A DNA stretch of 64,000 nucleotides, taken from assembly GCF_024584705.1 (NCBI RefSeq), contig NZ_CP097384.1, forward strand, positions 558,001-622,000, read 5' to 3'. Positions within the stretch are counted from its first letter, which is position 1; each line of letters opens with the position of its first letter. This DNA is from Blastopirellula sp. J2-11. GTDB taxonomy: Bacteria; Planctomycetota; Planctomycetia; Pirellulales; Pirellulaceae. The notes under the pieces are model-generated. The model was not told the origin of the DNA. It made no database searches and saw nothing but the letters and a program-made list of their open reading frames with translations. The position numbers were made by a program, and so were the translations under genes. This document shows positions 7,520 to 62,065 of the stretch, piece after piece.

Positions 7520-10500
7520 ATGAATCCGCTATCGCTCCCCTGTTTCGGTTGGATGACATTGCTGCTGTCGCTAACGCTGCCGACGATCGCATGCGGTCAG
7601 AAAGCGGAGAATCTGTTTGACGGCAAATCGCTCGATGGCTGGGAGACTCTCACCCGCGATCAAAAATGGTGGCGCGTGCAAGACGGATTCCTTGCCGGCG
7701 GCTCACTAACTCAAATAGTCCCGCACAATACCTTTGTCGCGACAGAAAAGAGCTATCAGAATTTTGAGTTGAAATTGGCGATCCGCATTCTAGGCGGCGA
7801 AGGCTTTATTAACTCAGGGATTCAAATTCGCAGCATCCGGGCGCCGAAAGGTTCTGAGATGGTCGGCTACCAGGTCGATGCCGGCGACGGTTGGTGGGGA
7901 AAGCTCTATGACGAATCGCGTCGTAACAAGGTGATCGCCGAGGCCAAGGATCTTGCCGCCGTCAACGCGGCCATCAAGAAGGATGATTGGAATGAGTTCC
8001 GAATTGTCGCCGAAGGCCCGCGCATTCGCTCGTGGATCAACGGCGTCGCCGCACTCGACTATACCGAAGCCGAAGCCGCGATTCCTCTCGACGGCAAGAT
8101 CGGGATCCAAGTGCATGGCGGCGGTAAGGCGCTAGTGCAATTAAAAGAGATCACGCTCCAAGAGCTTCCTCCAACTCTCGACGCGCCATCTTGGAAAGAA
8201 CGCTCGACCGAATCGCCGCAGACGGGAGCCGTTCCGCTTTCTGCCGAAGCAGAGTTAGCCGGTTTTCAGGTCCCCGATGGTTTTGAGGTGGAGCTAGTCG
8301 CCTCGGAGTCAGAGGGGATCGGCAAGTTTGTAGCGTTGGCTTTTGACGCCAAGGGACGACTTTGGACGACGACAGCGCTTGAGTACCCGGTCGATGCGAA
8401 CGAAAGTCCTGAAGAGTCACGCAGCCTATTCGCCGCAGGGGGCCGAGACAAAGTGTTGGTCATCGATAGTCCCTGTTCAGAAAAACCATCGCCGCCGCGC
8501 GTCTTTGCTAAGGGGCTCGTGATGCCGCTCGGCGTGTTGCCTTACGGCGACGGCGCTTTTGTGCAATATGGTCACGATATTCGTTTCTATCGTGACCAAG
8601 ATCAGGATGGAAAAGCGGACTCGCACGAGATTGTCCTTACCGGCTTCGGAACGCAAGACTCCCATCTCTTTCCGCATCAGTTTACGCGCGTCCCCGGCGA
8701 CTGGATCTTGATGGCCCAAGGGCTGTTTAACGCATCGACCGTCCGGCGCGCCAATGACGCTGCGTTTGCAAATGGGGAGAAGCAAATCGAGTTCAAGCAT
8801 TGCAAGTTGGGGAGATTCAACGCAGCCGGTGATCGCTTTGAGGCGCTCACGCAAGGACCGAACAACATTTGGGGACTCACCGTCTCTCGCGAAGGAAAGA
8901 TTTGGATTCAAGAAGCGAATGACATCGGACATCCGGTCAGCCCGTTTGAGCCTGGCGCCTATTATCCCACCGGATCGCGCGATCTGCTGAAGTCGTACCA
9001 ACCGCTGATGCCGCCGCCATTGGGGCCGCCGCAAATGGGTGGAACCGGCCTCAGCGGTCTTACGCTCGCCGACGATCGTCAAGGTTGGCCGTCGCCTTGG
9101 GGTTTTGACGCCGATGACCCCGCGGCGCCGCGTCGCTTCTATGTCGCCAATCCGATTACTAGTCGAATTCAATTGATTGAAGCGACGTTCGACGGCGACC
9201 GCTTTACGTACAAAAAGCGGCCTGACTTTTTGGTCTCGTCCGATCCGCGCTTTCGTCCGGTCGCCATTCAGTTTGGCCCCGATGGCTCGCTCTATGTGAT
9301 TGACTGGTACAACAAGGTGATCTCGCACAATGAAGTGCCGCGCAGACATCCCGATCGGGACAAAACGCGCGGCCGGATCTGGCGAATTCGCCACAAAGAT
9401 CAACCGCGCACCATACCGGTCGACCTGACGCAGTTGACCGTCGATCAGTTGGTCGATCGCCTAGGAGATGGGAACGCGCGAATCGCGGAACTCGCTTGGC
9501 AGCAGATCATCGATCGCCAAGCGAAAGAGGTGATTCCGCGGCTATCGCAAGTCGTGATCGATCGATCGGCGTCAGCTGATCGTCGCCTGGGAGCGCTATG
9601 GGCGCTCGAAGGGTTAACGCAGGTTCCCGCTTCGATCCTTCACGAGATCGCGCGAGCCGAAAATGCCAATCTTCGCCATGAAGCGGTTCGCATCGCCGCG
9701 GCTCAGCCGCGATCCGTCAACGAATTCCTCAAGATCGCCAAGCCGCTAGTGAACGATTCGTCGCCGCACGTCCGCGCGGCGCTAGGCGACGCGTTGCGAA
9801 GATTGCCGGCCGTCGATTCCAATGCGATTGCACTGATGCTAGAGCTGGGAAAAGCGTCGACCTCTGGGGACGTATGGACCGTTTACGATCGTGAGTTTGA
9901 ACGTTTTCTGGCCCGCTGGGCGATGGAAGAAAACCGAGAAGCGGTCGCCGCGTTCTTGAGCTCTCCAGCAGGGAAAGCCCTTCCTGTCGAGAATCGCGCT
10001 TTGGCGACTTTAGCGATTGGCGGGCGAGCAGGGGCCGTCGCTCTGGCGAATCTTCTCCCCGATTTAGAACGTCCTCTCAACGCCGAGGAAATCCGTGTCT
10101 TGGTTCCTCACTTTGCGGACAAGAGCGTCGCTCAAGAATTAACCCAGGCAATTGCCAGGAAATCGTCGCGTGACGCGATGTTGCGATCGTTTCTTCGGTT
10201 GCGCACCCAGATCGATTGGCGCCCGCTTCGCCCAGCGATCGAATTGGCTGCGGCGGAGATCCTGTCGGATCCGGCGCAAACCAGCTTCGCTTTCGAGTTG
10301 ATTCAAAACTTCCAACTGAATGGCCTAACGCCCGAAGTGATGAAGATAGCAACGGATCCGCAGGTAGATGCGGGACGAAGGATCACCGCGCTTCAGACGC
10401 TCGCCGAGTTGCCTTCCCTGGATGTGGAGCCATTGATTGAGATCGCTAATGCGACCGGTCCAAACTCCAAGATTCGCGAGGCTGCGATTCGTTGTCTGGC

Positions 10501-53682: not shown

Positions 53683-55452
53683 TTACTTAGGGGAGATCGC
53701 AGGTGGATTCGGGGAACTGTCGGTCGATGGTCTCGCCTGCAGAACGTTTTGCAGACTGAAATCGATCAGCAAGCGATCAATCCAAAGTTTGTCTTGCGGT
53801 TCGGTGTCTTTCCCCATCCGGAATCCCAGCGTGGATAGCGACGCCGCGCCTTGTTCTGGAGGAAGTTTGACCTGGAGATCGGGCGGACCGATCGATTCCA
53901 CGTCAGGATTAATCCACAACTCCAGGTGGTTGAATTTGCCCTTGCTCGACTTGCGAACGCGTCCCACGAGAAAGAAGCGAACATCGTTCCCCATTACCGG
54001 ACGACCATCTTGATGGTCCAACTTGGCTCGAGCAAAGTATTCGCCGAAACGTATTCCCGCATTCGGTTTCGCCGAGTGGCTAACTCCCACATCCAGAGAA
54101 TTGTCGAACCAGAGTGCGAAGAAATCGTTCGGATCGAGTCCCTGATATCGGCCGAGAAAACTGAAGTAAAAATCTTGGGCAATTCGTCCCGGCAGGCGCG
54201 TTTCCAGGCGATTGCAGAGCGAGGGAAACGCGGGATCACGGCCATCCATTTCAATCACGTAAGGATCGCCTGAGATAGACTGCCAGCGCAGTGGGGTATC
54301 CAAGAGCGTAACGCGTGCAAATTTTCCGTCGACAATCCAAGGGTGGAGTCCCTCTCGTCCCGAATCGGCGTGCTGAAAGGGGGAAAAGTCTTCCGCCAAC
54401 CAGGCCTGCGAGAAATTCGACGGCTGATCGGAAGCCGAGGAAGCGCCTAAGCGTGACAGCGCTTCCGAAAGCGGCATCGATTGAATGGCCGGAGGATACT
54501 GGCCGGTGCGCACCAGCTGAAGCTGCTCCAGCGAAGGCAAGGAAACAACGTCACTGGAATCGACGCTCGCCAGGTGAATATCAGTAAAGTCGGCAGGAGA
54601 CTGAGAGTAATGGGATCTGACTTTGGAACTCAGCAGCAATGATTCTTCGGCCTCGGGAGCTTTGCGAGAACGTACGGTGACTTCCCCTTCGTACACCTGG
54701 ACCTTGGCTTGTCCGGTAGCATCGACTTCGGCCCCAAACTTCGTCCCGAGATCGACGATCTTCATGTCTGGCGTCAGAACGGTGAATCCCCGTGCATCTT
54801 CCGGAACGACCGCGGCCAGCTTGCCTCGATGTAGAACCGCTTTCCAGGCGGAACGGAGTTCCAGGATAGCCGGCCCTTTCAAGGTAACCCCAGCTCCACA
54901 TTCGAAGGCGAGTCGCACGAGTCCCGAATCTAAGGCGAGACGCTCTCCCTCTCGAAAGGACATGCCATACTTCAACTCGCCAATCGAATTGGCCCAGACG
55001 GCATCTTCGCTATCGATCAGCATAGCCACGACGGCCGGTTGCTGAGGTCCCGACACAAGGAGAGGAGCCGCGGTTTTCTTGTCCCTCGTTGGCCACAGGA
55101 ATACTGCGCAGAAAGCAACGGCCAGCAATACTGCAATCGAAGCGACTGCTCCATACCAGCTTCGGAATTCGCGCTTCACCGAAACTAGCGTTTGACTTGG
55201 CGCCAATTCAACGGGCGCTTCCAAAGCAAAATCGGGTATCAATTCAGCAGCCGCTTCTGAGCAGTCGGCGTACGTCCACCGTAGGAGCGTGTCGGACAAA
55301 ATCTGATCGACATACAGCTGGCGAAGTTCGGGCGAACTTGCCACGATTTCCATCAATCGAGCATCTTCACTGGCCGTCAAGTTTTCATTGAACATTTGAA
55401 CGATCAGTTGCTCGAATTCGAGCCGCAATTCGGTTGTAACTTGATCGCTCAT
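53683..55452 (-). CDS. FecR-like signalling protein
   Basis: 589 residues from ATG 55452, overlapping the sigma stop by ATGA. An anti-sigma-type helical N-terminus (FEQLIVQMFNENLTASEDAR) precedes a membrane segment at about 101-119 (GAVASIAVLLAVAFCAVFLW). A FecR beta domain includes GAGVTLKGPAILELRSAW, FTVLTPDMKIVDLGTKFGAE and VQVYEGEVTVRSRKA. A long extracytoplasmic part (from about residue 330) resembles a carbohydrate-binding/LamG-like module. Probable regulator of the sigma factor cotranscribed with it. It repeats the organisation of 18248-20666. Confidence 0.87.
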   Translation of the reverse strand: MSDQVTTELRLEFEQLIVQMFNENLTASEDARLMEIVASSPELRQLYVDQILSDTLLRWTYADCSEAAAELIPDFALEAPVELAPSQTLVSVKREFRSWYGAVASIAVLLAVAFCAVFLWPTRDKKTAAPLLVSGPQQPAVVAMLIDSEDAVWANSIGELKYGMSFREGERLALDSGLVRLAFECGAGVTLKGPAILELRSAWKAVLHRGKLAAVVPEDARGFTVLTPDMKIVDLGTKFGAEVDATGQAKVQVYEGEVTVRSRKAPEAEESLLLSSKVRSHYSQSPADFTDIHLASVDSSDVVSLPSLEQLQLVRTGQYPPAIQSMPLSEALSRLGASSASDQPSNFSQAWLAEDFSPFQHADSGREGLHPWIVDGKFARVTLLDTPLRWQSISGDPYVIEMDGRDPAFPSLCNRLETRLPGRIAQDFYFSFLGRYQGLDPNDFFALWFDNSLDVGVSHSAKPNAGIRFGEYFARAKLDHQDGRPVMGNDVRFFLVGRVRKSSKGKFNHLELWINPDVESIGPPDLQVKLPPEQGAASLSTLGFRMGKDTEPQDKLWIDRLLIDFSLQNVLQARPSTDSSPNPPAISPK

Positions 55453-56069
55453 TGCGCCGCCCCCGCACTCAAGGCGCGTTCGACACATTCTTTCAGCGAC
55501 TTTCGCAACCGATAGAGCGTCATCGCAACTGCCTGAGGCTGACGTCCCAAGCGTTTCGCCAACTCGTTGACCGAGACGTTATGCTGATATCGTGATTGCA
55601 GGATCGACTGCTGAGATGATGGCAACTTGGCGACGCAGTTGCGCAACTCTTCCGCTCGCTGGTCAAGTTGGTTCAGTTGCATCGTGGCTCGATTGGCTAG
55701 ATCTTCAATGACATTCTCACTTAAAGAGATCAGCGATTTCCGCCCCTTGGATTTGAGAAACGCCAGCGTCTGCAATTGGGCGATCCGACAGGCCCAGCTT
55801 GCGAATGGTCGCTCTGGGTCATATTCCTCCCGCTTTCGCCACAGAACCAGATTGGTCTCTTGCAGCACATCATCCACGTCCGCCGGCGACCTGAGAAAAG
55901 TCCTCAGAAAAGCGGTCAGCGGAAGCTGATGTCGCGCCATCGTCGTGACGAATTCCTCGTCCAACTCATTCCTTGTCGGTGCGAGTGGCGGTTGGAATCC
56001 AGGCCTGGATTCCGTCAATCGCTGGTCGTCATGGTCGGTAATGATGAATACTCCAGCTTCTAATGACAA
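55449..56069 (-). CDS. ECF-type RNA polymerase sigma factor
   Basis: 206 residues if started at TTG 56069. The N-terminal ~35 residues are unsupported and no good ribosome site or ATG is seen, the next ATG (residue 44) being inside region 2. Region 2: EEFVTTMARHQLPLTAFLRT, DVDDVLQETNLVLWRKRE and FASWACRIAQLQTLAFLKS. Region 4: LPSSQQSILQSRYQHNVSV with the helix-turn-helix RLGRQPQAVAMTLYRLRKS. Controls the downstream FecR / DUF1549-1553 / DUF1501 / DUF1559 / lipoprotein genes in all likelihood. Confidence 0.85.
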   Translation of the reverse strand: MSLEAGVFIITDHDDQRLTESRPGFQPPLAPTRNELDEEFVTTMARHQLPLTAFLRTFLRSPADVDDVLQETNLVLWRKREEYDPERPFASWACRIAQLQTLAFLKSKGRKSLISLSENVIEDLANRATMQLNQLDQRAEELRNCVAKLPSSQQSILQSRYQHNVSVNELAKRLGRQPQAVAMTLYRLRKSLKECVERALSAGAAQ

Positions 56070-56564
56070 AACGGGCGTAGCAGCGCCTAGGACCGTGTAA
56101 TCAATTCGAATCCCCCGCTAATCACAAAAGTCGCTATTGGGAGTTAGCTAAAATTCACGATTCATAACGAGAAAATGTCAGCAATTCTCGTTTTTCTCTA
56201 GATTACTAAGCGGTCACCGGAATTTGTAAGCGCAATATCGAGACGAATGTCGGATGCGAGTCGTCGATATGCCTACAAATTCATCGCGGATTCTACGCGC
56301 TGCTTTGGAGTTGCGTTTCGATCAGCAATGTGCCGCAAAAGCAGTTGGAGAACTGTGCGTTTCGTGAAATACGACCAGAAGGAATTCGTCGCTCTGGGCT
56401 TGTAAATGCGGTATAACCATCGTCCGTCCTAACTAGTTTGAATGGGTGACAAACTCTCTTTTTCTGCCTTCTCCAGATCGCGCGGCGACGTATTGTCAAA
56501 ACTTTCCGTCTTCTCCGTTTCGAATCCCTTCTTCTCAACCAGCCGGGCTCACTCGTAAGCGTCT
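56070..56564. other. Intergenic region of about 500 bp with a small hairpin
   Basis: Divergent space between the sigma gene and the SWIM gene. A stem ACGAGAA / TTCTCGT (56167-56173 with 56185-56191) followed by a run of Ts is a weak terminator candidate on the plus strand, with no gene known to end there. The rest, including a low-quality 81-codon minus frame, is unassigned. Confidence 0.4.
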
Positions 56565-57929
56565 ATGTCCGCACTAGCTCTCGATTACACCTATAACTAC
56601 TTGCAACCTTCACGGCTTGATCCTGCTGCGCAGTTGTTACAGCTCGCGACGTACTCTGCTGGCGACGATCCGCATCCCTGTTTCTTTCGCGGCAAGCTGG
56701 TGCGGCCGAAACGCGTGGCCGAGATGCTGCGTAAGCTGATGCAGGTTGTCCAGACGCGTTACCATATTCCCGCGGCCATGCTGCAGCGGATTGTCATGCT
56801 GTCGGATCCGATTGTCACCAGCAGTGATGATCGACTTCGTTTTGAAGGGTTTTCCAGCTGCTGTGGCGTCTATGCCCGGATTGACTTGCATCCCCGTGCG
56901 GTCGACGGCGAGATGTTCGGCCGCGGTACGACGAACGTTGATTTCAACGAACCGATGCTCGCGGCGCTCGCGATGGTGCGTGAAGGTGATGATATTTCAC
57001 TGTTTGTCGGCGCGGATCGCGTTGAACTGGCGAAGAACGACCAGACCGTCGTCGAGAAGAAAGTCCAACTTCCCTATCGCTGGCTGCGAGGGCTCGTCGA
57101 AGTCCAAGCCTGTCAAAGTCGGATGCAGTTGGTTCACCAGGTAAGCGGCGTCGAGGCCCGGCGGTTTTTTCGATCATTGCCACGATCGAGCACCAGTCGC
57201 CGTGAAATGTTTGTGACGACGACCGGCGGCGGTTTGCGATTGACGCAACGCGAAACGGCGAAGTCGGTTCGCGTTGGCGGACTACAGCGTCTGCGCGTGC
57301 TCGAAGATTTGACGACGCAGGCGAAACAACTGCGGATCTATGGAGACGAAGTAACAGGTGCATCGGGCTGGGAGCTGGTTTTTGACGATTCGCGATTTCA
57401 CCTGGTCATCAGCCCTGAAGTATGGCGAGGCTTTTCGGGGGAAGGTCAGGCATTGGATGCGCTTGCGCAGAGTGATAAAGATGACGCTCTGATGAAGGTC
57501 GAGTCGCAACTGCACTGGGATGCAGTCGTGGATGAAGAGAGCCTGGTGACGCAACTTGGGCTAACGCCGCAGGCAGTGCGACAGGCGTTGGTTGTATTGG
57601 GCACGCGTGGCCGAGTCGGTTTTGATCTCGGCGCATCCTCTTACTTTCAACGCGAGTTGCCGTTTCGCTTGGACGAAGTCGAAAAGTTGCAGCCGCGTCT
57701 GGTCAACGCCAGAAAACTGATTGCCGAGGGGAAAGTTCGGCTTGGCGCGAAGAACGGCGCTGCGGTCGAAGTCTTCGTTCAAAGTGGTCAAGTAGAGCAT
57801 CGCGTTCGCTTGTCGGCGGACGGCGCCAAGTGTACTTGTCCCTGGTATTCCAAGCACGCGTCGAGTCGCGGGCCTTGCAAACACATTTTGGCGGCCAGCG
57901 TTTATTGGGAAGAGAGGAGCGATGAGTAA
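56565..57929 (+). CDS. SWIM zinc-finger domain protein
   Basis: 454 residues. The SWIM zinc-finger CxCx12CxH lies at the C-terminus: C423, C425, C438, H440 in KCTCPWY and RGPCKHIL. The rest (about 1-400) has no family I can name by eye. It contains segments of mixed alpha/beta character such as FEGFSSCCGVYARID and VVVLGTRGRVGFDLGASSYF, without a nuclease or helicase motif. SWIM domains bind DNA or protein. The stop codon overlaps the start of the 1001-codon gene by 8 bases, so translation is coupled and the products probably act together. Confidence 0.85.
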   Translation: MSALALDYTYNYLQPSRLDPAAQLLQLATYSAGDDPHPCFFRGKLVRPKRVAEMLRKLMQVVQTRYHIPAAMLQRIVMLSDPIVTSSDDRLRFEGFSSCCGVYARIDLHPRAVDGEMFGRGTTNVDFNEPMLAALAMVREGDDISLFVGADRVELAKNDQTVVEKKVQLPYRWLRGLVEVQACQSRMQLVHQVSGVEARRFFRSLPRSSTSRREMFVTTTGGGLRLTQRETAKSVRVGGLQRLRVLEDLTTQAKQLRIYGDEVTGASGWELVFDDSRFHLVISPEVWRGFSGEGQALDALAQSDKDDALMKVESQLHWDAVVDEESLVTQLGLTPQAVRQALVVLGTRGRVGFDLGASSYFQRELPFRLDEVEKLQPRLVNARKLIAEGKVRLGAKNGAAVEVFVQSGQVEHRVRLSADGAKCTCPWYSKHASSRGPCKHILAASVYWEERSDE

Positions 57930-60927
57930 GCAACCGCTGGAAGACATTTTGAAGTCGGGCGATCTCGGCAAGTGTCGCGACTTTTTTCTGGGAATGCCAG
58001 AGCAAGAGCGGCGACGCTTGGCGCCGAAATGCATTGATTGGTTGCGCAAGTCGTTCGACTCGCGCACTTTCGATGCCGAGACCCGCACTTACAACTATCG
58101 AGATCACATGCCAACCGAGACCATCGCGGTAGCGGTGTTCTCTACCGGGACGGCGGCGGAGCTGAAAAAACTGGGTTGGCAGGCGCGCATCAGCGAGGAC
58201 CTGATGTACGAAATCTTCGTCGATCGACGACCTGACTGGATTGTCCAGTGGGTGCAGCAGCAGTTAGACGCAGAACGTTATTGGGGGCATTGGCGACTAA
58301 TCCGCCGGCTTGTCTTGTCAGGACTCTTGGAGAAGCCTGAGCATCCCAACTATTACTTAGGAATGATCGGCGCTCTCAAGGGGCCTCGATTGGCGAGAGA
58401 TTCTGAGCCCTCCTTAGAGGCGAAGTTGCGCAGCGATCCGACCTTGCTGGAGGACGACGTTTGGCGTTTGTTTGAATACGAAGGCGGAGGGGATAACAGT
58501 CTAGCCAACTGCGATAAGGTGAGTCTCGGGGGAAAATGGAGCGATTCGCTGATCGCGTTGGCCGCGACCGGCGATTTGTCTCGCGACCGTCTGTTGACTT
58601 GCTCGCTCGATGCGCTAGAGCGCGATTTCAATCACTATCGGGCGAAGTGGTTCCTTGATTTTCATGACGCTTTACAGCCCACGAAAGAAGAGCAGGCGGC
58701 GTTTGCTCCGCAGTATCTGCACCTACTCGGCGCTTCGGCGCCCAATGTTGTCACCTGGGCCTACAAAAAAGTGGAGCAACTTGCCAAAGCCAAAGCGATC
58801 GATCCCAAGTTGCTGATCGCGAACATTCGACCCGTGCTGCAATCTCGGCAAAAGGGGATTGTCAACAAAGCGTTGAAGCTGCTCGATACGGTCGCCAAGA
58901 AAAGCAAGGTTGAGAAATCCGATCTGGCTTTCGTTGTATTGCCGGCCTTGGGACACGAAATCGCCGAGGTGCAAGCCAATACGCTCGGCCTGATCGAAAC
59001 CTACGGTGACTCGAACAACTCGAAGTTCGTCCGCGAGTTTCAAGAGTACGCGTCGGTGATTGCTCCTTCCGAGCGAAAACGATTCGACGCCTGGTTGGCG
59101 ACGACTGGCGAATCGGTCGAAGTCGCACTTCCTGCCGAGGAATCGGCGGCGCCGGTCGACCTGCAGCAAATCAAAGCGATTGACCCCAAGCTGCGAAAGC
59201 TGTTCGCGATTGACGATTTGCTGGAAAGTCGAAAGCAAGGTACGACCACGATCCCTGCGGTCCGTTTCGATGGAACCGACATTCCTCGTTTGCCGGGACA
59301 GGCCAAGATCGCACCGATAGAAGATCTCGACGAATTGATCGAATCCTGTTCGCGACTGATTGAAGACGCGAAAGATATCGATCATGTGGAGCGCGCCTAC
59401 GACGGGATCTCACGCCTCTGTGATGTGCGACCGGATGATTTTGATAGCCGTGTCGCTCCTTTGCTGCAGCGCGTTGTCAAGCTGCTCAAGAAAGATCGTT
59501 TCCCGTTTGCGGGGATCGGCCCCGGGGATGATCTTTGCGGATTGATCTACGCTTGGTGTACAGGGATCGTGTTAGAAGGGAAGCGGAAAACGTCGAACAG
59601 ACATGCGGTCGTTCAGTACACGTTGGAAGGGGAGGAGCATTCAGCGCTGAGTGGAAATCTGGATAAGCCGATTGGGTTTCTCTCTCGACGTATTTTAGCG
59701 ATCGCCAAACGCGTCGCTGAGCGAAAACCTGCTGCGCTTTGGAGCGCGCCGACGCACCAGGGAGCTTGGATTGATCCCCACGTACTTGTCGAGCGCGTGC
59801 GCGCCAGCGGCAAAAGTGAGCCTGATCTTTACGATGTGATCCTCGCATTGTTACGGCTTGCCCCCGATGATCGCAAAGGAGCGCTGGCTCAACTAAAGAG
59901 CAATTCCTCGGAGCTTACCCAGGCCGTCCGTTACGCATTGGGAGCCCCCAAAGTTGCGATCGGCGAGACGGCGCCGCTGTGGTTCGCAGCGGCCCGTTGT
60001 CGTGCGCCCTGGAACAACGACGTTCAAGTCGCTGCGGCGTTTCCCGATCAAGGTCCCGATACGGCGCAGGCGGCGAAGCATGAGTTGATCATTGAGAAGA
60101 CTCGATCCAAAAGATTGCGGATCGGGCTTCAGTCCCTTCCACCGGCGCCCAAAAAGCTTGACCCGTATTGCGTCACCGCTTGTTATCGGGCCATCAATGG
60201 AACCTTGGATCACTGTCGGTTTGAGTTGGGTGGAGCAGGGGGGCGCAGTAGCGACGCAGTTGCTTGGACGGCGTCGATTTGGCCTCAGGCCCGCGAATCG
60301 TACTTCGCCGTCGCCGCCTTCGATTTGGCCGAAAACCTGGATTGGTGGGGCGCAGAATGGCAGAACAAGACATTTCTAGAGCCGCTGTTCGAGCCGACCA
60401 CGCCGCTGCGCGAGATGGGACTGCTGCTGCTGGCGATCGGCCTGGGCGCTAAAGATCCCGGCGAGCATGGCCTGGCGACCGACGTCACGATTGCGACGAT
60501 TGAAGATGGACGACTAGGCAGCGACAATCTCGGCCAAATCCTGCACCAACTATTGCCCACGGGCTTAGTGAAGCCGGTGCGTTGGGCCAAGACCTTGGCC
60601 GAAGCGGCGCGGATTTCAACCGTTCACGCAGCCGTGATCCAACAATCGCTGCAGCAAGCGCTTTCGATCGATGAGAAGTCGCTCCCACGAGATTGGGCCA
60701 AACTGCTGGAACTGCTGCTGCAACTTTCGATCGACCTGGAGCAATCGATCTCGCACCCCGGATGTCTGGAGCTTTTAAGAAGTTTAAAAGGATCTGGCAA
60801 AGGGCCCAAGATCGCCAAATTGCTCCTGCAAAGAACCGCATCGCCTGAGTCCTCTCAGCGGATTATCGATCTTGCACTTCAACATCGGATTCATACTTTA
60901 GAAGCAAGGATGGCCAAAGCGGTTTGA
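57922..60927 (+). CDS. Large protein of unknown function paired with SWIM protein (DUF6493-like)
   Basis: 1001 residues from ATG 57922. I do not recognise a catalytic motif. The whole length is rich in helical repeats suggesting HEAT-like or TPR-like scaffolding: RQKGIVNKALKLLDTVAKK, EIAEVQANTLGLIETYGD, DALERDFNHYRAKWFLDFH. It has no signal peptide or membrane span, so it is probably cytosolic. The N-terminal pattern (FFLGMPEQERRRLAPKCIDWL) and its position 3' of a SWIM gene resemble the DUF6493 family. That assignment is from memory and unchecked. E. coli also places a SWIM gene beside a large DUF-type gene in its yeh locus, but homology is not claimed. Confidence 0.75.
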   Translation: MSKQPLEDILKSGDLGKCRDFFLGMPEQERRRLAPKCIDWLRKSFDSRTFDAETRTYNYRDHMPTETIAVAVFSTGTAAELKKLGWQARISEDLMYEIFVDRRPDWIVQWVQQQLDAERYWGHWRLIRRLVLSGLLEKPEHPNYYLGMIGALKGPRLARDSEPSLEAKLRSDPTLLEDDVWRLFEYEGGGDNSLANCDKVSLGGKWSDSLIALAATGDLSRDRLLTCSLDALERDFNHYRAKWFLDFHDALQPTKEEQAAFAPQYLHLLGASAPNVVTWAYKKVEQLAKAKAIDPKLLIANIRPVLQSRQKGIVNKALKLLDTVAKKSKVEKSDLAFVVLPALGHEIAEVQANTLGLIETYGDSNNSKFVREFQEYASVIAPSERKRFDAWLATTGESVEVALPAEESAAPVDLQQIKAIDPKLRKLFAIDDLLESRKQGTTTIPAVRFDGTDIPRLPGQAKIAPIEDLDELIESCSRLIEDAKDIDHVERAYDGISRLCDVRPDDFDSRVAPLLQRVVKLLKKDRFPFAGIGPGDDLCGLIYAWCTGIVLEGKRKTSNRHAVVQYTLEGEEHSALSGNLDKPIGFLSRRILAIAKRVAERKPAALWSAPTHQGAWIDPHVLVERVRASGKSEPDLYDVILALLRLAPDDRKGALAQLKSNSSELTQAVRYALGAPKVAIGETAPLWFAAARCRAPWNNDVQVAAAFPDQGPDTAQAAKHELIIEKTRSKRLRIGLQSLPPAPKKLDPYCVTACYRAINGTLDHCRFELGGAGGRSSDAVAWTASIWPQARESYFAVAAFDLAENLDWWGAEWQNKTFLEPLFEPTTPLREMGLLLLAIGLGAKDPGEHGLATDVTIATIEDGRLGSDNLGQILHQLLPTGLVKPVRWAKTLAEAARISTVHAAVIQQSLQQALSIDEKSLPRDWAKLLELLLQLSIDLEQSISHPGCLELLRSLKGSGKGPKIAKLLLQRTASPESSQRIIDLALQHRIHTLEARMAKAV

Positions 60928-61047
60928 AGAGACGGCAAGGCAATTCCCTTCGTAGTCTGAAACGCCAGTTCTGAATTTTTTGGAATTGCGCTAGTGCAGC
61001 GATTCCGAGGGCGTAGACATGATGATTCTCTCTTTGCATGAAACGTG

Positions 61048-61092
61048 AACTGCCGAACTCCCCTTGGTCGGATCCAAGAGGAGCCGGCAGTT
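61048..61092 (-). terminator. Long hairpin after the alpha/beta hydrolase
   Basis: AACTGCCG (61048-61055) pairs with CGGCAGTT (61085-61092), with further pairing CTCC/GGAG and CTTGG/CCAAG inside. The gene stop is 8 nt upstream of it. There is little U-run after it on the minus strand, so it may end the operon or protect its 3' end. Confidence 0.6.
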
Positions 61093-61099
61093 GGATCGG

Positions 61100-62065
61100 C
61101 TACTTGGTAACGTGCTTGCCTAGGAAGTTTCGCATCAGCGTAGCGATCTCGGCGCCGTTCGATTCTAGAGCGAAGTGCCCAGCGTCGAGCAGGTGGAACT
61201 CCAGCGTCTTCAGGTCTCGCTTGTAAGGCTCCGCACCTGCGGCCGGGAAAATCAAATCGTTCTTGCCCCACGCGATCAGCATGGGAGGCTGATGCTTGCG
61301 GAAATATTCTTGCCACTTTGGATAGAGCGGCGGGTTGCTGCCGTAGCTGAGAAACATGTCAAGTTGAATCTCGTTGTTGCCGGGACGATCCAGCAGAAAC
61401 TGATCTTCCGCCGGTCCGTCAGGACTGACGAGCTCTGGGTTTTTCACACCATGCACGTACTGCCACTTGGTGGCGTCGTAAGTAAGCAGTTTGCGCAGCG
61501 AGTCTCGCTTCTCTTGGCTCGTCGGCTGGTTCCAGTAGGCTTTGACCGGCTGCCAGAAATCGTTGTCGAGACCTTCGTCATAGGCGTTGCCGTTTTGTAC
61601 GACGATGGCCGTGATTCGCTCGGGGTGCTGCGACGCCAGACGAAACCCGATCGGAGCGCCATAGTCCTGCACATACAACGCGTAGTTCGTCAGGCCGACT
61701 TGTTCCGTGAATTTATCGATCACTTGCGCCAGGTGATCGAAGGTGTAGGAAAACTTGTCATGCGACGGCATCGAACTATGACCGTAGCCGGGATAGTCGG
61801 GCGCAATCACATGATACTTGTCGGCCAACGCGGGGATTAAATTACGAAACATCTGCGAACTGGTGGGGAAACCATGGAGCAACAAGATCGCGGGAGCGTC
61901 CTTGGGGCCGGCTTCTCGGTAAAAAATATCGAGATCGCCGACCTTAGCCGTTTTGTATTTCACGACGGACGATTGCTGCGCGAGCGCAGAACCGGGAAGG
62001 CCTAAGGCCAATGATGTCAGCATCGCGAGAGCGAACGCTAGATTCCATTTCGTTCTATGTGTCAT
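61100..62065 (-). CDS. Exported alpha/beta hydrolase (epoxide hydrolase/haloalkane dehalogenase-like)
   Basis: 321 residues, ATG 62065. Signal peptide of about 29 residues ([18 protein letters not shown]). Catalytic triad by position: nucleophile D134 in VQDYGAPIG, acid D270 in AWGKNDLIF and base H297 in DAGHFALE. The oxyanion region is [13 protein letters not shown]. An aspartate nucleophile at QDYG indicates the epoxide-hydrolase/haloalkane-dehalogenase branch rather than an esterase. Substrate unknown. Last gene of a minus-strand run that also includes AhpD-like, DUF417 and DUF1348 genes. Confidence 0.9.

What the first reader, a model, noticed from the sequence alone, without database searches (positions are those of the whole stretch)
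57922..60927. 1001-residue protein of unknown function translationally coupled to a SWIM zinc-finger protein
Eight-base overlap, no catalytic motif recognisable by eye, helical-repeat character, cytosolic. The pairing suggests a two-component complex whose role is not described to my knowledge. The nearest MoxR/VWA genes (Bat operon) are about 11 kb away and probably unrelated.
Basis: partly seen in the sequence, partly recalled or inferred. Interest (0 to 1): 0.55.

Follow-up and report, generated by a model that had tools for sequence, protein, structure and literature searches.

The report
Clamp-like SWIM protein with HEAT partner
Two overlapping bacterial genes encode a protein predicted to fold like the ring-shaped DNA clamp of replication, plus a long helical-repeat partner; the clamp-like protein is a cousin of one found in type XIII retrons (candidate virus-defence systems), but here no reverse transcriptase is encoded beside it.

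Summary
In detail: a 1001-residue ORF (57922-60927) overlaps a 454-residue SWIM protein gene by eight bases. It carries DUF6493, DUF7824 and DUF7825 and is predicted to be a HEAT/ARM-like solenoid without a recognisable enzyme. The pair is a real two-gene module: the SWIM gene was found near it in 50 of 58 related loci, across at least seven phyla, and no other gene family recurred. MoxR/VWA genes look unrelated. Two results were not foreseen. The SWIM protein is homologous over its whole length to the SWIM protein of type XIII retrons (hhalign E 1e-53), whose large partner is also a HEAT-repeat protein; but no reverse transcriptase was found beside any pair. And its residues 39-287 are predicted with high confidence to have the fold of a PCNA-type sliding clamp (Z 19), followed by a winged helix and the zinc finger. 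Best reading: an RT-less sister of the type XIII accessory module, in which a clamp-like DNA-binding protein is controlled by a HEAT solenoid. Homology and fold are well supported; DNA binding is inferred; defence is plausible from kinship and patchy distribution, but defence genes were not enriched nearby. Nothing is tested experimentally.

The parts
56565..57929 (+). SWIM protein, 454 aa: predicted PCNA-type clamp domain (residues 39-287), winged helix (about 303-370), SWIM zinc finger (412-444)
   Evidence: ORF; SWIM Pfam; PADLOC SWIM_XIII; AF2 mean pLDDT 89, pTM 0.86; Foldseek/VIA clamp matches; weak winged-helix matches
57922..60927 (+). DUF6493-DUF7824-DUF7825 protein, 1001 aa, predicted HEAT/ARM-like solenoid; H612, W616, R625 and R645 invariant in 48 aligned sequences
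   Evidence: Pfam; AF2 mean pLDDT 90, pTM 0.87; fold search; alignment A3
57922..57929 (+). 8-base overlap of the two genes (likely translational coupling)
   Evidence: sequence; similar tight spacing in relatives
56679..57425 (+). coding region of the predicted clamp domain (residues 39-287)
   Evidence: VIA-align model range 39-287
57798..57896 (+). coding region of the SWIM zinc finger (residues 412-444); the only PF04434 match at E <= 0.01 in the 6.43 Mb genome

Best explanation
A self-contained two-gene accessory module. Protein 1 (454 aa) is a predicted PCNA-type sliding-clamp domain fused to a winged helix and a SWIM zinc finger; protein 2 (1001 aa) is a HEAT/ARM-type solenoid made of DUF6493-DUF7824-DUF7825, probably made together with protein 1 by translational coupling. 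SHOWN by computation: the conserved pairing, the full-length homology of protein 1 with the SWIM protein of type XIII retrons, no reverse transcriptase found beside the pair, and (as a high-confidence prediction) the clamp fold. INFERRED: protein 1 assembles on DNA, perhaps as a ring or partial ring held by its basic inner helices plus winged helix and zinc finger; protein 2 binds it and acts as sensor or gate that opens or blocks the clamp when DNA replication is disturbed, for example by a phage. In type XIII retrons the RT and its DNA product would be a second control layer on the same kind of clamp/HEAT module; here that layer is absent, so the solenoid would sense directly. A defence role is the most likely purpose, but is the weakest step.
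For: Pairing: SWIM gene in 50 of 58 loci; in a sample of 294 genomes of the phylum, 7 of the 8 genomes with DUF6493 have a strong SWIM match next to it, and none of the other 286 has a strong one. No other gene family recurs as a fixed neighbour. Homology: hhalign of 39 pair SWIMs against 11 type XIII SWIMs, probability 100, E 1e-53, 444 columns. Type XIII loci: PADLOC RT_XIII, WGR_XIII, HEAT-ARM_XIII proteins, an RT in 11 of 17 regions, RVT_1 in three tested neighbours. Helices corresponding to PCNA's inner ones have net positive charge in 39 of 39 sequences, K/R at 172, 175 and 242 wherever a residue is present. HEAT-like solenoid. Accessory and mobile: 6 of 40 near genomes have the genes; elsewhere in one sister species, decayed in place in another; on plasmids.
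Against: No experiment. PCNA similarity is structural only: no clamp among the 10 PDB-sequence matches or the 25 of 27 Pfam families shown. The large proteins of the two systems are not detectably homologous (hhalign probability 2.6%); HEAT-type solenoids are common, and Z 11.8 with rmsd 14.8 may be only a common arrangement. Four loci with room for it lack a recognisable SWIM gene (L033, L052, L067, L068), and one plasmid SWIM gene has no DUF6493 gene next to it (L095). Neighbours within 2.5 kb are not richer in PADLOC families than genes over 5.5 kb away. No phage record was found with either gene and no viral contig with the SWIM gene. Several carrier genomes are fragmented, so an RT beyond a contig end cannot be excluded there. 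Complex formation, ring formation and DNA binding were not testable here.
Confidence: 0.55

Rival explanations
1. An accessory DNA-repair or replication module: the clamp-like protein is an alternative processivity factor or lesion-site platform, and the solenoid a scaffold; no role in defence.
For: Clamp fold plus winged helix and zinc finger; no defence-gene enrichment nearby; no phage or viral copies found. HEAT scaffolds of DNA machines (FANCI/FANCD2, Pds5, condensin) appear among the weak fold matches, but so do importins and others.
Against: Rare and patchy (8 of 294 genomes in the phylum sample), at different places in two species of a genus and decayed in a third, and its SWIM protein is kin of a retron accessory protein. 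No polymerase or repair family recurs among the neighbours.
Confidence: 0.25
2. A degraded or RT-less type XIII retron, i.e. the pair is the leftover of a retron whose RT and ncRNA were lost or lie elsewhere and act in trans.
For: Full-length SWIM homology; the own genome has one RT elsewhere.
Against: The pair SWIMs form one side of a branch with SH-aLRT 100, not scattered among retron SWIMs (quick tree); a different large protein and gene order; carrier genome G003 has no RT at E <= 0.001, and in the other nine carriers searched no RT lies within 80 kb on the pair's contig, though some of these contigs are short; the own-genome RT matches generic and CRISPR-type RT models, not RT_XIII.
Confidence: 0.08
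3. A regulatory pair: the SWIM/winged-helix protein is a transcription regulator and the solenoid its co-factor.
For: Winged-helix similarity to GntR-, TrmB- and TFE-type regulators, all weak.
Against: No recurrent neighbour that could be a target operon; the clamp domain and the retron kinship stay unexplained.
Confidence: 0.08

Closest known systems
Type XIII retron accessory proteins (PADLOC SWIM_XIII, WGR_XIII, HEAT-ARM_XIII with RT_XIII)
   Same: Full-length homologous SWIM protein, paired with a large HEAT-repeat protein.
   Different: No RT found beside the pair; the large partner is DUF6493-type, not detectably homologous; gene order SWIM then solenoid, whereas L073, L074, L076, L077 and L088 have HEAT-SWIM-RT; separate SWIM clade.
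PCNA / sliding DNA clamps
   Same: Predicted clamp fold over residues 39-287, Z 19.1 to archaeal PCNA; basic inner helices.
   Different: No sequence match; extra winged helix and SWIM finger; ring formation unknown; found in bacteria, whose own clamp is the three-lobed DnaN (recalled).
DUF6493 / DUF7824 / DUF7825 Pfam families
   Same: All three domains above cut-off.
   Different: These families carry no function; this report adds the partner, the fold and the kinship of the partner.
YehL-YehM-YehP-YehQ (MoxR, DUF5682, VWA, SWIM) of E. coli
   Same: A SWIM protein encoded near a large protein of unknown function.
   Different: YehM is DUF5682; YehQ and YehM are not detectably related to the pair; YehQ has no SWIM_XIII match; no MoxR or VWA family recurs in the pair loci.

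Membership tests
Type XIII retron | SWIM protein of the SWIM_XIII family | tested here: met
   PADLOC E 2.1e-57; hhalign E 1e-53 over 444 columns. That '_XIII' means retron type XIII is recalled and agrees with a PADLOC-based passage in PMC11953036
Type XIII retron | Reverse transcriptase beside the accessory genes | tested here: not met
   0 of 59 regions L013-L071 at E <= 1e-4 by a profile of four type XIII RTs; 10 carrier genomes by PF00078, none beside the pair, none at all in G003
Type XIII retron | HEAT/WGR partner of the same family | tested here: not met
   No PADLOC match of the large protein at E <= 1; hhalign probability 2.6%; a HEAT profile from three type XIII loci finds nothing in the pair regions at E <= 10. 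Folds of the type XIII partners were not predicted
Type XIII retron | msr-msd noncoding RNA | tested here: inconclusive
   No Rfam match at E <= 0.1 in 55400-61200; DNA similarity to the sister-species pair begins 5 bases before the SWIM start codon and ends inside DUF6493
DUF6493 (PF20103) with DUF7824 and DUF7825 | Scores above Pfam gathering cut-offs | tested here: met
   89.3, 73.4 and 53.0 bits against 25, 27.5 and 27.4
Sliding DNA clamp (PCNA) | Clamp fold | tested here: met
   As a prediction:
Sliding DNA clamp (PCNA) | Ring assembly around DNA | not testable with these tools
   Single-chain prediction only
Sliding DNA clamp (PCNA) | Processivity role with a polymerase | not testable with these tools
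   No polymerase family recurs among the neighbours
YehLMPQ-type MoxR/VWA/SWIM system | MoxR ATPase and VWA genes in the operon | tested here: not met
   No such family recurs in three or more of 59 regions; the window's MoxR gene is 11 kb away
YehLMPQ-type MoxR/VWA/SWIM system | DUF5682 protein | tested here: not met
   YehM is DUF5682; the large protein has no DUF5682 match at E <= 1

The most novel reading that the evidence does not exclude
A so far undescribed family of bacterial clamp machines: a PCNA-fold protein with winged helix and SWIM finger grips DNA, gated by a HEAT-type solenoid, spread by horizontal transfer as a phage or plasmid guard. Type XIII retrons would be the branch of this family that acquired a reverse transcriptase, so that their effector, too, is a DNA clamp rather than a nuclease or membrane toxin.
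Probability: 0.4. Interest if true: 0.82.

Novelty: new variant of a known kind. Interest (0 to 1): 0.64.

Why it matters
It joins an orphan DUF pair to a retron type by shared descent of a whole protein, and gives that shared protein a concrete predicted fold, the sliding clamp. This makes a question testable: what do type XIII retron accessory proteins do? A PCNA-like protein in bacteria that is not DnaN would also be unusual, and the RT-less pair is a simpler system in which to study it.

Tried and rejected
MoxR/VWA link (YehLMPQ): rejected, no detectable sequence relation of either protein and no recurrent MoxR/VWA neighbour. DUF4132 protein YehI: no relation. The conserved C-terminal G-S-G-K stretch (957-960) is not a Walker A pattern as I recall it; not pursued. 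Defence-island test: 120 neighbours within 2.5 kb (sampled from 238, left of 249 after dropping 11 of 900 aa or more) against 120 genes over 5.5 kb away (sampled from 187 of 188, one dropped): 30 against 37 PADLOC families at E <= 1e-15 (25 shown of each), no enrichment; gene calling there was naive (longest ORFs of 100 aa or more), and the tally counts families, not systems. Promoter/terminator scan: about as many as in shuffles. Rfam: nothing. Viral contigs with pair SWIM and with retron SWIM alignments: 2 and 116 pattern matches, none confirmed. For the four loci with room but no SWIM gene (L033, L052, L067, L068), eight neighbours tested gave no SWIM match. Papers: DUF6493 none; SWIM+MoxR+VWA two listed, one seen in passages; YehLMPQ two listed; SWIM zinc finger+DUF+operon+bacteria none; at least three of retron/SWIM/WGR/type XIII none; retron+type XIII one, passage seen; retron/SWIM/HEAT/WGR 9,028, the 15 listed off topic; retrons+effector+reverse transcriptase+HEAT repeat+zinc finger none; retron with sliding clamp 7 listed, off topic by title, not read; SWIM/WGR/PCNA-like/retron 5 listed, plant and animal papers. 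The paper that named the retron types (Mestre and colleagues 2020) is not held and is recalled.

Full report
OBSERVATION. The ORF at 57922-60927 (+) encodes 1001 aa and overlaps the SWIM-protein ORF 56565-57929 by eight bases. Pfam assigns DUF6493 (4-308), DUF7824 (461-696) and DUF7825 (776-961) to the large protein and a SWIM finger (412-444) to the small one. There is no NCBIfam match for either and no solved structure by sequence for the large protein, all at E <= 1. The genome, a 6.43 Mb single contig, has one copy of the large protein and one SWIM match. A MoxR gene lies 11 kb off, beyond a sulfatase, a DUF1559, a DUF1501 and a planctomycete-cytochrome gene.

A CONSERVED TWO-GENE UNIT. 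A scan of genome contigs gave 52 loci; with seven regions of unnamed relatives 59 regions were read, of which 58 hold DUF6493 at profile level (L014 holds only remnants). 50 of the 58 also encode the SWIM protein: directly upstream on the same strand in 47, and in another arrangement in three (L016 convergent, L034 downstream, L059 divergent). Of the eight without it, four begin at or within 0.5 kb of a contig end (L028, L037, L039, L071); L033, L052, L067 and L068 lack it. Taking the longest ORF as the gene, the overlap is 8 bases in four loci and 4 bases in eleven. Clustering the neighbours found no other gene family tied to the pair: the next clusters were sulfatases (8 loci), sensor-kinase-like proteins (6) and sets in four or three loci, at variable distance and strand (the names are my reading of the sequences, and neighbours seen in one or two loci were not annotated). 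Six of 58 loci have two or more nearly complete DUF6493 genes, and a Diaphorobacter plasmid has two annotated ones, with a site-specific integrase gene just upstream of the SWIM gene.

A PHYLUM SAMPLE. Among 294 genomes drawn evenly from the phylum, 8 have DUF6493 at E <= 1e-10 (one of these, G079, only a piece in a 154-aa frame) and 19 have a SWIM match. The seven strong SWIM matches (385-861 bits) are in seven of the eight DUF6493 genomes and lie next to it. Twelve further genomes have only weaker matches (42-140 bits); G052 and G083 have both kinds.

MOST OF THE WEAKER RELATIVES ARE TYPE XIII RETRONS. Seventeen regions from 14 genomes were fetched for these matches. The four SWIM proteins tested there hit PADLOC SWIM_XIII with E from 5e-139 to 7e-187; three large neighbours (L073, L074, L076) hit WGR_XIII and HEAT-ARM_XIII, two others (L077, L088) a 1972-position HEAT-ARM_XIII model, and one RT (L077) hits RT_XIII. 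Three more neighbours have Pfam RVT_1. An RT profile built from four of them finds an RT in 11 of 17 regions, the four seeds and a piece at a contig end (L089) included; a HEAT profile built from three finds its kind in 13 of 17, seeds included. Of the six regions without an RT, L078, L081 and L084 are short contigs and L086 ends just behind its SWIM gene; L079 has a HEAT-type hit but no RT, and L087 holds only a SWIM fragment with no HEAT or RT hit. In the 59 pair regions the RT profile (E <= 1e-4) and the HEAT profile (E <= 10) find nothing. That the suffix XIII stands for retron type XIII is recalled, and agrees with a paper that reports 'retron type XIII' from PADLOC (PMC11953036, passage). 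Window SWIM to SWIM_XIII: E 2.1e-57. Profile against profile, 39 pair SWIMs and 11 retron-type SWIMs align over 444 columns with E 1e-53. Shared positions conserved in nearly all of both sets include D81-P82, E94, F96, S97, Y103, G121-T-T-N124, D126, E164, P170, W173 and R242. A tree of these 50 sequences puts the two sets on the two sides of one branch (SH-aLRT 100); inside the pair set planctomycetes occur in several places, some within a group with Pseudomonadota (97) and one beside a Chloroflexota sequence (88, weaker), as expected from transfer between phyla (quick search, and the program warns of long branches near the root). The large proteins of the two systems show no significant similarity.

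NO REVERSE TRANSCRIPTASE FOUND. In ten carrier genomes searched with PF00078, nine have RTs but none beside the pair: they are on other contigs or, on the same contig, about 84 kb (G219) or megabases (G021) away; G003, a species of the same genus with the pair, has none at E <= 0.001. Several of these genomes are in many pieces (the pair contig of G012 is 8.6 kb), so in them an RT past the contig end is not excluded. In G052 and G083 an RT sits at the separate type XIII locus. The window's own genome has one RT elsewhere, which matches generic, CRISPR-type and weakly Drt9 models but not RT_XIII.

A SLIDING-CLAMP FOLD. AlphaFold2 with 39 sequences gives mean pLDDT 89 and pTM 0.86 for the SWIM protein. 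Foldseek against the PDB: 478 matches at E <= 0.001, the 50 shown all from sliding-clamp entries (PCNA, DnaN, 9-1-1, a viral PCNA), best E 7e-10. VIA-align: best 2izo_B, archaeal PCNA, Z 19.1, rmsd 2.9, 213 residues, model 39-285 onto chain 1-244. Sequence searches do not see it: no clamp among the Pfam families shown for 39 members or among ten PDB-sequence matches, most of which point weakly to winged helices at about 300-359. The four helices that, by order, correspond to PCNA's DNA-facing helices carry mean net charge +4.3 over 52 residues, against +2.1 over the other 194 residues of the domain; the sum is positive in 39 of 39, with K/R at 172, 175 and 242 wherever a residue is present. 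That these helices face DNA in PCNA is recalled.

THE LARGE PROTEIN. AlphaFold2 with 48 sequences: mean pLDDT 90, pTM 0.87, nearly all helix with small strand insertions. Fold matches are HEAT/ARM-type solenoids: Foldseek best E 5e-5, VIA best Z 11.8 with rmsd 14.8. This is a common arrangement and says little about function. H612, W616, R625 and R645 are invariant in 48 of 48; H612 and W616 lie in a motif with consensus P-T-H-x-G-G-W-I-D-P. In 36 loci with both proteins aligned (first DUF6493 copy taken) the SWIM protein is the more conserved in 630 of 630 comparisons (means 44% and 26%), and the two identities rise together (r 0.82).

MOBILITY. Six of 40 near genomes carry the genes (own included; in G012 in two overlapping frames), and G002 a scrap. 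In G002, whose flanks are 86.5% identical DNA over 8.8 and 3.0 kb, two short pieces of DUF6493 remain at the same place: loss in place. In G003 the pair is elsewhere: within the compared 17 kb only the two genes, not the flanks, are similar, from 5 bases before the SWIM start. Records of the plasmid collection: DUF6493 in 3, SWIM in 9, some of them megabase replicons and one of 11.9 Mb. Six SWIM records were opened: three have SWIM and annotated DUF6493 side by side, one a large hypothetical gene there, S. cadmiisoli has SWIM without such a gene next to it and one record is unannotated. On the Asticcacaulis plasmid the pair lies about 5 kb from genes that match IetA and IetS; this is one case. 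Phages: none.

MECHANISM. Shown or strongly supported: two-gene unit, SWIM kinship with type XIII retrons, no RT found beside it, predicted clamp, zinc finger, solenoid; the winged helix rests on the model and weak matches. Inferred: DNA gripping by the clamp protein, gating by the solenoid, relief or triggering when replication is disturbed. Speculative: phage defence. The near/far test for defence genes was negative, so the defence step rests on kinship and on the patchy, mobile distribution. I found no paper that links DUF6493, or a clamp fold, to retrons (listings and one passage), but most subscription papers and preprints are not in the library.

VERDICT. A real, conserved, unexplained pair, now tied to a retron type and given a surprising predicted fold: a new variant of a known kind, interest 0.64.

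Noticed in passing
L014:9765-12482 (G002, same genus): At the place of the pair a sister species keeps only two short DUF6493 pieces (9818-10002) between flanks 86.5% identical to the window's; another ORF fills part of the gap.
   Followed up: partly
L077:10683-16883 and L088:2342-8695: Type XIII-like retrons with a HEAT partner of over 2000 aa (HEAT-ARM_XIII; in L077 with weak beta-propeller matches), against 846-1015 aa in L073, L074 and L076: the HEAT partner of type XIII retrons is itself variable.
   Followed up: partly
L090:1099-3536 (own genome, G000:C1 near 1,439,890): A 448-aa reverse transcriptase overlapping an upstream 384-aa ORF with no PADLOC match; best RT matches are generic and CRISPR-type models, weakly Drt9.
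   Followed up: partly
L015 and L016 (G016 contig C10, about 83 kb apart): One genome carries two DUF6493-SWIM units, the second in convergent orientation and with a divergent large protein.
   Followed up: no
L061:9836-20462 and L053 (Solirubrobacter): Several shortened DUF6493 genes around one SWIM gene (naive ORF ends).
   Followed up: no
L058: A contig titled Klebsiella pneumoniae (MAG) carries the pair; it may be mis-binned.
   Followed up: no
L052:12655-14454: A 600-aa ORF without Pfam or PADLOC match overlaps the end of a DUF6493 gene that has no SWIM neighbour; possibly another partner.
   Followed up: partly
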